A stretch of DNA of 34,516 nucleotides, from contig JAFGSX010000590.1 of assembly GCA_016934455.1 (NCBI GenBank), forward strand, positions 1 through 34,516, written 5' to 3'. Both the position numbers and the translations under genes were made by a program. Below are positions 1 to 2,042 of this stretch, in pieces. This DNA is from Deltaproteobacteria bacterium. Its GTDB lineage: Bacteria; Myxococcota; JACRCW01; JAFGSX01. The stretch's first letter is position 1. Every line of letters begins with the position of its first letter. Below the pieces are notes generated by a model. The model was not told the origin of the DNA. It was given only the letters and a program-made list of their open reading frames with translations, and ran no database searches.

Positions 1-258
1 CCGCGCGTCGTACACCGCGCGGTGCAGCGGCCACTCGCCGAACAGCCGGTGCCGCCCGCGCAGCACCTTGCCGCCGCGATCGACGACGAGCAGGTCGTCG
101 ATCTCGACCAGGCGTTTGGAGTACGCCGTCGGGGTCGCGACGAAGCGGCCGTCGTCGTCGCGAACGCTGACGTTGCCATCGTGGTTGGCGACCCAGCCGC
201 GCGCGTGCAGCTCGCGGGCGTAGCGCGCCACCTCGGCCAGGCGCTTGCGGTCAACCAT
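1..258 (-). CDS. Class II aldolase/adducin-family protein, N-terminal part (runs off window)
   Basis: Only the first 86 codons lie in the window. The N-terminus carries a helix rich in Arg/Ala, then the class II aldolase signature GNVSVR at residues 28-33, which forms the phosphate-binding region in fuculose- and rhamnulose-phosphate aldolases. The zinc-binding histidines lie further on and are outside the window, so activity cannot be judged. The ATG at 258 overlaps the TGA of the upstream vertex-protein gene (253-251), so the two are translationally coupled. Class II aldolases sit beside several BMC-P genes in the sugar-phosphate microcompartments of the Planctomycetes-Verrucomicrobia type, where they split fuculose- or rhamnulose-phosphate to lactaldehyde; a comparable role is inferred here. 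Other members (ribulose-5-P epimerase, adducin-like) cannot be excluded. Confidence 0.75.
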   Translation of the reverse strand, partial: MVDRKRLAEVARYARELHARGWVANHDGNVSVRDDDGRFVATPTAYSKRLVEIDDLLVVDRGGKVLRGRHRLFGEWPLHRAVYDAR

Positions 259-535
259 GCGACGCCTGCGGCACGCTGTCCACCGCGTCGACCACCCCGA
301 TGATCAGCGAGCGGATCGGCGGCTCGCCGACGATGAGCTGACGCACGCCGTTGCCCTCGGTCATCACCAGCACCAGGTCGCCGGCTCCGGCTTGCACGCG
401 GTCGATGGCGAGAAAGGAGGCCGCGCACGGCTCGCCGCGGTCGTCGACCGGCTCGACCACCAGCAGCTTGTGACCCAGGTAGGACTCGTGCTTGGCAGTC
501 TGGGTCACGCTGCCGAGCACCCGGCACAGCCTCAC
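251..535 (-). CDS. EutN/CcmL-family microcompartment vertex protein (BMC-P), copy 2
   Basis: A 94-residue protein, the usual size of the family. It opens with [10 protein letters not shown] and has the VEPVD stretch around residues 27-31, the AGDLVLV core at 50-57 and the closing IIGVVDAVD at 78-86, all typical of EutN/CcmL/PduN proteins. These form pentamers that close the twelve vertices of a bacterial microcompartment shell. The start is the GTG at 535, which overlaps the TGA of the preceding paralogue (534-532) in a GTGA arrangement; an upstream extension of the frame would run through the neighbour gene. It lies between another BMC-P gene and a class II aldolase gene, as expected inside a microcompartment operon. 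Family assignment is secure; the cargo pathway is not. Confidence 0.88.
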
Positions 536-840
536 GGTGCCCGCCTCAGATGCGTCCGGCCGGGGTCGACGACGTCCACGCTGTCTACGATGCCGACGAT
601 CGCGGCGTCGACCGGCACGAATTTGTCGGGCATGGCCAGCGACGCCTCGCGGCTGCCGACCAGCGACACCAGATCGCCGGGGCCGGCGCGCACGGTCGGG
701 TCGCACGCCACCTCGGGCTCGCGCGTGCTCTTGCCGGCATGGTCGACCGGCTGCACCACCAGGAACTTGATGCCGTCGAGACCCGGCACCTTGCGGGTGG
801 CGACCACGGTGCCGATGACGCGTCCCAGATACAAGCTCAC
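532..840 (-). CDS. EutN/CcmL-family microcompartment vertex protein (BMC-P), copy 1
   Basis: A 102-residue EutN/CcmL-type protein. Visible family marks are the N-terminal strand [15 protein letters not shown], the FLVVQPVD segment at residues 26-33, [11 protein letters not shown] at 53-63 and [12 protein letters not shown] at 80-91. The start is a GTG at 840; there is only a weak ribosome-binding site (GGA just before). It is clearly a diverged paralogue of the next gene rather than a recent copy: the cores match but the loops differ. Two or three distinct BMC-P proteins per locus are known in several metabolosome types and let different vertices carry different pentamers. It follows the HD-GYP gene by 47 bases on the same strand, so read-through from that promoter is possible. 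Confidence 0.85.
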
Positions 841-887: not shown

Positions 888-2042
888 TCAATGCGCGCCG
901 CTGCCCGCGGCGGCTCCGGCCGCGCCAGGCGCGCGCAGCGTCGGCAGCTCGTGTCTCCGGGCGGCGGCCATCTCGTCGAGCTGGGCGCGAATGGCGACCC
1001 ACTCGGCGATCGGCACCGCGACGAAGGCGCTGGCCACGACCGGATCGAACTGGCTGCCCGAACAGCGGTTCACCTCGGCGATGGCCACCTCTGGCTCGCG
1101 GCCCTCGCGGTAGGGCCGGTCGCTGGTGATGGCGTCGTAGGTATCGACCACGGCGAAGATGCGCGCTCCGATCACGATCTGATCGCCGCGCAGCCCCTGC
1201 GGGTAGCCTTTGCCGTCAAAGCGCTCGTGGTGGTGCAGCACGACCAGCGCCGCGCCGTGCAGGAATTCTACCGGCTGGATCAGGTCGTGCCCGATCTTCG
1301 GGTGCTGCTTCATCTCGGCCCACTCGGCCTCGTCGAGCGCAGCGGGTTTGAGCAGCACCGAATCGCGCACGCCGATCTTGCCGATGTCGTGCAGCAGCGC
1401 GCCCTGCTCGACCACGGTCAGCTCCGGCTCGGTGATCCCGAGCTGCTGCGCCAGCCGCCGCGCGTAGAGAGCCACCCGCCGCGAATGCCACTGGGTCTCG
1501 GTGTCGCGAAAGTCGAGCGCCGAGATCAGCCCGTCGAGCAGGTTGGCAGTGCGCTCGTGCACCAGACGGTCGAGCCGCTCGTTGGTGTGGCGCAGCAGCT
1601 CGTTCTGGCGCTGCACCGCCTGCTGCAGGGCGCGGTTCTCGCGCTGCAGCCGGGCCATCCGCACGCCCTCGGAGACCGCGCTGAACAGCTCGGCCGGCTT
1701 CCAGGGCTTGGCCACCACCCGCTGTACGCCGCCGCGATTGACCGCGTCGCTCACCGTGTCGAAATCGGTGTTGGCGGTGATCAGCAGTCGCGCCGCCTCG
1801 GGCGACGCCTCGGCCACCTTGGCCAGCAGCTCGCTGCCGACCATCTCGGGCATGCGATAGTCGCTGAGCACCACGTCAAACGGCTGCTGCGCGCGCTCGG
1901 CATCGAGCACGAGGTCGAACGCGACGCTCGGTCGGCTGGCGGTGACGACGTCGAAGCCCTGGCGCTCGAGCAGGCGGCCGAGCGCGACCAGGATCACCTC
2001 GTCATCGTCGACCACCAGCACGCGCGCCTGGGACCCGGTCAT
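888..2042 (-). CDS. Response regulator with HD-GYP output domain (predicted c-di-GMP phosphodiesterase)
   Basis: A 384-residue two-domain signalling protein. Residues 6-125 are a receiver domain: acidic pair D12/D13, phospho-acceptor D61 in LSDYRMP, and K112 in AKPW. A coiled helix follows (about 130-165), then an HD-GYP domain from about 165 to 345 with the metal-binding HD in LLHDIGKIG (H218, D219), HHERFDGKGYP at 271-281 and the VVDTYDAIT stretch at 298-306. This family hydrolyses cyclic di-GMP (some members cGAMP). The HHE-GYP motif is complete, so activity is expected. The tail after 360 is Ala-rich and likely disordered. The ATG at 2042 was chosen because GAGGGAG lies just upstream and the receiver domain starts there. 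The partner kinase is not in the window. It is divergent from uvrC and lies upstream of the microcompartment genes. Confidence 0.9.
   Translation of the reverse strand: MTGSQARVLVVDDDEVILVALGRLLERQGFDVVTASRPSVAFDLVLDAERAQQPFDVVLSDYRMPEMVGSELLAKVAEASPEAARLLITANTDFDTVSDAVNRGGVQRVVAKPWKPAELFSAVSEGVRMARLQRENRALQQAVQRQNELLRHTNERLDRLVHERTANLLDGLISALDFRDTETQWHSRRVALYARRLAQQLGITEPELTVVEQGALLHDIGKIGVRDSVLLKPAALDEAEWAEMKQHPKIGHDLIQPVEFLHGAALVVLHHHERFDGKGYPQGLRGDQIVIGARIFAVVDTYDAITSDRPYREGREPEVAIAEVNRCSGSQFDPVVASAFVAVPIAEWVAIRAQLDEMAAARRHELPTLRAPGAAGAAAGSGAH

What the first reader, a model, noticed from the sequence alone, without database searches (positions are those of the whole stretch)
1..840. Edge of a microcompartment locus with two diverged vertex proteins and a class II aldolase
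Two BMC-P genes and a class II aldolase overlap each other by a few bases. This combination is familiar from Planctomycetes-Verrucomicrobia fucose/rhamnose compartments but the neighbourhood (HD-GYP regulator, uvrC, Tol) is not. It suggests a metabolosome, possibly sugar-phosphate/lactaldehyde type, in a Myxococcota-like genome.
Basis: partly seen in the sequence, partly recalled or inferred. Interest (0 to 1): 0.55.

Follow-up and report, generated by a model that had tools for sequence, protein, structure and literature searches.

The report
Satellite genes of Haliangium-type bacterial microcompartment
These three overlapping genes are an outlying piece of a known kind of bacterial protein-shelled compartment whose job is still unknown, and comparing many relatives suggests that the compartment breaks down the sugar from DNA building blocks.

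Summary
Window 1-840 (minus strand) carries two overlapping vertex (BMC-P) genes and the first 86 codons of a class II aldolase. It is a satellite locus of the Haliangium ochraceum (HO) type microcompartment, already described in print (PMC8217296: "type I HO ... [quoted passage not shown] The rest of the shell lies on other contigs: BMC-T-dp, BMC-H (77 of 92 residues identical to HO-5815), the third BMC-P and an acylating aldehyde dehydrogenase on C310; a PduS-like protein and a PduT-like BMC-T on C198. The fucose/rhamnose reading is weakly supported: in 61 of 102 BMC-P-linked aldolases the third zinc histidine of FucA is Asn (here too), and 97 of 102 lack FucA's Ser71. Instead, an N-terminally extended deoxyribose-phosphate aldolase goes with the compartment (57 of 73 BMC-P-positive against 6 of 122 negative genomes). 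This supports and extends the published guess that HO compartments degrade nucleic acids. That enzyme was not found in this 82%-complete genome, so its own substrate stays open.

The parts
532..840 (-). BMC-P vertex protein 1 (102 aa, GTG start), orthologue of the first satellite BMC-P of HO-type systems
   Evidence: Pfam EutN_CcmL 4.9e-26; in the sat1 clade of 88 BMC-P (100/94 support)
251..535 (-). BMC-P vertex protein 2 (94 aa, GTG start), orthologue of the second satellite BMC-P; overlaps BMC-P1 by 4 bases
   Evidence: Pfam EutN_CcmL 5.4e-21; in the sat2 clade (99/96 support); ORF 251-706 ends at the stop 251-253
1..258 (-). class II aldolase, first 86 residues; runs off the contig; remainder is at the end of contig C428 (L110:17713-18339 minus, kept as P0001)
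   Evidence: Pfam Aldolase_II 4.4e-16; window covers profile 7-89, C428 covers 94-221; P0001 Aldolase_II 2.7e-16
888..2042 (-). response regulator with HD-GYP domain, 47 bases upstream on the same strand; a neighbour, possible co-transcription, not shown to belong
   Evidence: Pfam Response_reg 3.2e-19, HD_5 2.3e-32; spacing

Best explanation
The three genes are a type I satellite locus of an HO-type microcompartment: two vertex paralogues (sat1, sat2) plus the satellite class II aldolase. Shown: identity of the genes, orthology of all three BMC-P, and presence elsewhere in the genome of HO-type BMC-H, BMC-T-dp, the third BMC-P, an acylating aldehyde dehydrogenase with a targeting-peptide-like N-terminus, and a PduS/PduT-like redox pair. 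Inferred mechanism (for the type about 0.6, for this genome about 0.4): an aldolase makes acetaldehyde inside the shell, the aldehyde dehydrogenase turns it into acetyl-CoA, PduS/PduT pass electrons out, and a PduL-acetate kinase protein makes ATP. The aldehyde source in the type is most likely a deoxyribose-phosphate aldolase (DERA) that carries a targeting peptide and a Cys-rich linker, so the compartment would degrade deoxynucleosides. The satellite class II aldolase is probably cargo with a changed active site rather than a fuculose-phosphate aldolase.
For: Three BMC-P clades main/sat1/sat2, each one side of a branch in 200 of 200 bootstrap trees; window proteins in sat1 and sat2, C310 protein in main. 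BMC-H 77 of 92 residues identical to HO-5815; BMC-T-dp best hit HO-5816 chain 1.1e-75. 63 of the 73 BMC-P-positive genomes have exactly three BMC-P (counted by eye). 85 of 112 distinct aldolases have two BMC-P just upstream. DERA with its N-terminal extension aligned: 57 of 73 BMC-P+ genomes vs 6 of 122 BMC-P-. A targeting-peptide matrix made from DERAs scores 15 of 17 aldehyde dehydrogenase N-termini above the 99th percentile of 452 controls, this genome's included (15.2). Predicted DERA: helix 5-25, low-confidence linker 28-84, barrel. DERA next to thymidine phosphorylase and purine nucleoside phosphorylase in L052 and L057.
Against: DERA and EutB were not found in this genome, though it is 82% complete. 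The aldolase tail here has no targeting-peptide-like score (-9.2). The association of the DERA extension with the shell is not corrected for kinship; 31 of 122 negatives have a DERA whose place was not listed. Several BMC-negative genomes keep a helix like the peptide (13 of 29 rows over the control 99th percentile). No activity has been measured.
Confidence: 0.72

Rival explanations
1. A fucose/rhamnose (PVM-like) metabolosome: the class II aldolase splits L-fuculose- or L-rhamnulose-1-phosphate and lactaldehyde is oxidised inside the shell.
For: A class II aldolase of the FucA fold stands next to the vertex genes in most satellites; the model's best structural match is E. coli FucA, Z 28.5, 28% identity.
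Against: FucA Ser71 (phosphate site) absent in 97 of 102 and zinc ligand His155 replaced by Asn in 61 of 102 BMC-P-linked aldolases, this genome's included; a homologue scores 84 bits against a FucA cut-off of 400; no fucose or rhamnose genes were looked for.
Confidence: 0.1
2. The satellite aldolase is an active lyase on another 1-phospho-ketose (for example ribulose-1- or 5-deoxyribulose-1-phosphate), giving glycolaldehyde or acetaldehyde alongside DERA.
For: Glu73, His92 and His94 are kept wherever the positions could be read in BMC-P-linked rows; Asn could hold the metal; the Bacillus thuringiensis enzyme 6btg (Z 27.2), described there as a deoxyribose-phosphate aldolase bound with DHAP, is among the close matches; C-terminal helices on many members look like targeting peptides.
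Against: No equivalog model reaches its cut-off; the changed residues include phosphate and metal positions; nothing measured.
Confidence: 0.35
3. In this lineage the shell is fed by ethanolamine (EutBC) or is a decaying relic.
For: The only other genome held of this class has EutB-EutC and a BMC-domain gene with no BMC-P found; DERA not found here.
Against: EutB not found in this genome; all three BMC-P, BMC-H, both BMC-T types and the aldehyde dehydrogenase read open here.
Confidence: 0.12

Closest known systems
HO-type bacterial microcompartment (Haliangium ochraceum), type I, Sutter et al. 2021, PMC8217296
   Same: BMC-P triplet, two of them in a satellite with a class II aldolase; one BMC-H; BMC-T-dp of the HO-5816 kind; acylating aldehyde dehydrogenase in the main locus
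   Different: The BMC-T lies beside a PduS-like gene on its own contig; the aldolase ends in three 26-residue repeats; DERA not found in the incomplete genome
SPU (sugar phosphate utilization) microcompartments, PMC8217296 and PMC4207490
   Same: Predicted use of deoxyribose phosphate through DERA and acetaldehyde, if the type-level evidence applies
   Different: Shell orthology here is HO; DERA is mostly outside the main locus; RpiB was not tested
PVM (Planctomycetes-Verrucomicrobia) fucose/rhamnose microcompartment, as described in PMC4207490
   Same: A class II aldolase linked to vertex genes
   Different: Altered zinc and phosphate residues; no contiguous locus
L-fuculose-1-phosphate aldolase (FucA, 1FUA)
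   Same: Fold; Glu73, His92, His94
   Different: His155 to Asn in most, Ser71 to Phe or Pro, Gly44 to Ala in most; well under the family score cut-off

Membership tests
HO-type microcompartment, type I | BMC-P triplet | tested here: met
   three BMC-P in the genome, one in each of three clades
[quoted passage not shown]
   window 1-840
HO-type microcompartment, type I | HO-type BMC-H and BMC-T-dp with BMC-P and aldehyde dehydrogenase in a main locus | tested here: met
   C310: BMC-T-dp, BMC-H, BMC-P, aldehyde dehydrogenase (cut by contig end)
HO-type microcompartment, type I | assembles into a shell | not testable with these tools
   needs expression and microscopy
SPU microcompartment | DeoC-type aldolase (pfam01791) | tested here: inconclusive
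   none found with PF01791 or with a DERA profile, genome 82% complete
SPU microcompartment | RpiB-type isomerase (pfam02502) | not tested
   no search made
PVM microcompartment | class II aldolase as signature enzyme | tested here: inconclusive
   class II aldolase fold present, but FucA Ser71 and His155 are changed
PVM microcompartment | shell, aldehyde dehydrogenase and aldolase genes in one locus | tested here: not met
   C428 (25.3 kb) and the window hold no further shell gene; no aldehyde dehydrogenase seen in the C428 gene list, read by first residues
FucA (L-fuculose-phosphate aldolase) | score over the family cut-off (TIGR01086, 400 bits) | tested here: not met
   homologue L049 scores 83.9; the window fragment 23.6
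FucA (L-fuculose-phosphate aldolase) | zinc ligands His92, His94, His155 (roles recalled) | tested here: not met
   His, His, Asn in the C428 piece

The most novel reading that the evidence does not exclude
HO-type microcompartments, the main structural model shell, are deoxynucleoside organelles. Their true signature cargo is a DERA with an N-terminal targeting peptide and a Cys-rich (CxxCxxC-like) linker that may bind metal or a cluster. The satellite 'class II aldolase' has been rebuilt at its metal and phosphate sites (His155 to Asn, three changes on the tree: separate gains, or one gain with losses) and does new chemistry or acts as a scaffold. Myxobacteria that lost the shell kept fading targeting peptides on DERA as fossils.
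Probability: 0.35. Interest if true: 0.68.

Novelty: new member of a known kind. Interest (0 to 1): 0.45.

Why it matters
A 2025 paper says that HO compartments have "a yet unknown function" and that their native encapsulation peptides are unknown (PMC11924220, passages seen). The comparison made here names candidate native cargo (extended DERA, aldehyde dehydrogenase, satellite aldolase) and candidate native targeting peptides for that widely engineered shell, which makes both questions directly testable. The locus itself is one more member of a described type, from a class with two genomes held.

Tried and rejected
PF01791 over the phylum at E 1e-20 proved useless for DERA: DERAs score weakly (47 bits for one) and most rows there look like other members of that family; replaced by a DERA profile. 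EutB as the aldehyde source here: not found. Fold search of the aldolase model: nearest is FucA; it does not tell a substrate. PduL with a targeting peptide: the only PduL domain found is the C-terminal part of a cNMP-AckA-PduL fusion; Ack-PduL fusions without a peptide are already described (PMC4784909, passages seen). Score thresholds are hand-set. Gene calling was by composition and conservation, no gene finder. H. ochraceum's own genome was not reached: it is not among the 80 loci, and no G handle bears a name; HO identity rests on PDB chains. Whether the HD-GYP regulator goes with satellites elsewhere was not tested. Absence from print: the searches showed no report of the His155-to-Asn change, of the Cys-rich DERA linker or of relic peptides; only listings, starts of abstracts and the passages were seen, so this is weak.

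Full report
What is there. On the minus strand of window 1-840 lie two BMC-P (vertex) genes, 532-840 and 251-535, and the first 86 codons of a class II aldolase from 258 to the contig end, with overlaps of 4 and 8 bases. The window is one whole contig, C181, of a 613-contig genome that is 82% complete. The genome's order is represented only by itself and its class by two genomes.

What lies beyond base 1. A profile of related aldolases hits the window at profile positions 7-89 and contig C428, at its very end and on the same strand, at 94-221. Both pieces are cut by contig ends and complement each other, so C428 almost certainly precedes the window, with a few codons missing. C428 (25.3 kb) has no shell gene and none of the expected cargo genes was seen in its gene list, read by first residues. 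Whether that fusion serves the compartment is not shown.

Identity. BMC-H matches H. ochraceum HO-5815 at 77 of 92 residues, BMC-T-dp matches the HO-5816 chain at 1.1e-75, the third BMC-P the 5v74 vertex chain at 1.4e-33. In a tree of 88 BMC-P from 48 loci, proteins next to the aldehyde dehydrogenase, first in the pair and second in the pair form three groups, each one side of a branch in all 200 bootstrap trees; the window's proteins fall in the first-of-pair and second-of-pair groups and the C310 protein in the main group (7 rows could not be labelled by place and the 3 rows of this genome were left unlabelled on purpose). This is the type I HO satellite of Sutter et al. 2021 (PMC8217296; [quoted passage not shown] 73 of 195 genomes of the phylum have BMC-P, 63 of them exactly three (counted by eye). 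Type II layouts are seen in L044, L045 and L132-L136, and compact ones with pair and main genes together in L182, L183, L194, L195, L211, L218, L222, L224 and L227.

The aldolase is not a plain FucA. Among 102 distinct BMC-P-linked aldolases with the positions readable, the third zinc ligand (FucA His155) is Asn in 61 and His in 41; FucA Ser71 is kept in 5 (two linked rows with unreadable positions, the window piece and L136, were left out). FucA residue roles are recalled, apart from the mutant list shown. The window genome has Phe and Gly at 71-72 and Asn at 155. On a 112-row tree the Asn/His label needs three changes, all forced by well-supported branches; the bootstrap had not settled. The tree puts this genome's aldolase in an all-Asn group of 50 rows (88/83 support), but no starred set holds it. 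A model of an Asn member has mean pLDDT 91.7 and matches FucA at Z 28.5, rmsd 2.0, over 206 residues. Row selection is biased, since loci were fetched through BMC-P or aldolase matches.

DERA goes with the shell. Near many satellites stands a deoxyribose-phosphate aldolase with an N-terminal helix and a Cys-rich linker; in L052 and L057 thymidine phosphorylase and purine nucleoside phosphorylase follow. With a profile of these DERAs over 195 genomes, the match reaches the N-terminal extension (profile start 10 or less) in 57 of 73 BMC-P-positive and 6 of 122 negative genomes. Of the other positives, 9 start at 11-57 (seven of family f3, G164 and G027; the f3 ones read carry an extra domain behind the peptide), 2 at 58 or later though a peptide-like helix is seen by eye, and 5 have no DERA (this genome among them). 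Of the other negatives, 2 start at 11-57, 74 at 58 or later, 31 have a DERA whose place was not listed and 9 have none. Fisher's exact p is 1.8e-27, without correction for kinship. Three or more Cys in the 75 residues before the barrel: 46 of 51 distinct DERAs of the shell-linked set (which includes L137 and L217, whose loci show no BMC-P) and 5 of 29 of the negative set. The five are G001, three odd Asp/Cys-rich ones and L363. A matrix built from the shell-linked DERA peptides scores 15 of 17 aldehyde dehydrogenase N-termini above the 99th percentile of 452 control N-termini; this genome's scores 15.2. The model of a DERA shows helix 5-25, a low-confidence stretch 28-84 and the barrel.

Fossils of loss. 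Many BMC-P-negative genomes have a DERA with a fading copy of the helix and no Cys motif: 13 of 29 rows of the negative set pass the control's 99th percentile (G001, which may simply lack the shell contigs, and one odd DERA of family f15 are among the 13). This fits loss of the compartment, but a different use of the helix is not excluded. The negative set is 29 of the 82 negatives whose DERA place was listed.

What it means for this genome. DERA and EutB were not found; with 18% of the genome missing, either may exist. G001, the only other genome of the class, has an extended DERA with the Cys motif and a EutB-EutC-BMC module but no BMC-P. Modules of EutA/B/C with a BMC-T as satellites of HO compartments are described in PMC8217296 (passage seen). 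Strong EutB matches (over 560 bits) are in 36 genomes, 31 of them BMC-P-positive.

What is known and what is added. PMC8217296 already says that the HO function is enigmatic, that some HO genomes have a pfam01791 enzyme elsewhere, some with a peptide-like extension, and suggests nucleic-acid catabolism. PMC11924220 (2025) still calls function and native peptides unknown. Added here: the count over 195 genomes, the Cys-rich linker, the relic peptides, and the changed zinc and phosphate residues of the satellite aldolase.

Verdict. The finding is real and is a new member of a known kind. The functional lead has interest beyond this locus, but rests on sequence association alone.

Noticed in passing
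L110:17719-17954 (contig C428), 3' end of the aldolase gene: Three 78-base tandem repeats, 98% alike, each with a 9-base hairpin; they read through as three 26-residue repeats at the aldolase C-terminus. The core is in no other of the 364 loci held; the genome was not searched for it.
   Followed up: partly
L040:1998-4430 (contig C443): One 810-residue protein with cyclic-nucleotide-binding, acetate kinase and PduL domains. Ack-PduL fusions are described (PMC4784909); the cyclic-nucleotide part was not looked up.
   Followed up: partly
L293, L294, L295 (genomes G158-G160): DERAs of shell-less small genomes with a targeting-like helix and an extreme Asp/Cys-rich linker, perhaps metal binding.
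   Followed up: no
L310:7314-10266 (G001:C127): EutB, EutC with a helix-like N-terminus, and a BMC-domain protein in the only other genome held of this class.
   Followed up: partly
L007:12118-12354 (contig C310): A 78-codon open frame, lipoprotein-like at its start, sits between BMC-H and BMC-P; no Pfam match. May not be a gene.
   Followed up: no
L112:3814-4512 (contig C476): A second class II aldolase of this genome with His155 kept and a short CxxCxxC tail; no shell gene on its contig.
   Followed up: no
12 of the 25 loci L041-L065: A gene for a zinc-ribbon protein of about 450-700 residues recurs in these loci, in most of them close upstream of the BMC-P pair.
   Followed up: no
L189, L224: Contigs labelled Klebsiella pneumoniae MAG carry myxobacterial-type HO loci, so the labels look wrong.
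   Followed up: no
L044, L045, L132-L136 (type II loci): DERA reading frames of about 500 codons with a further domain between the peptide and the DERA barrel.
   Followed up: no
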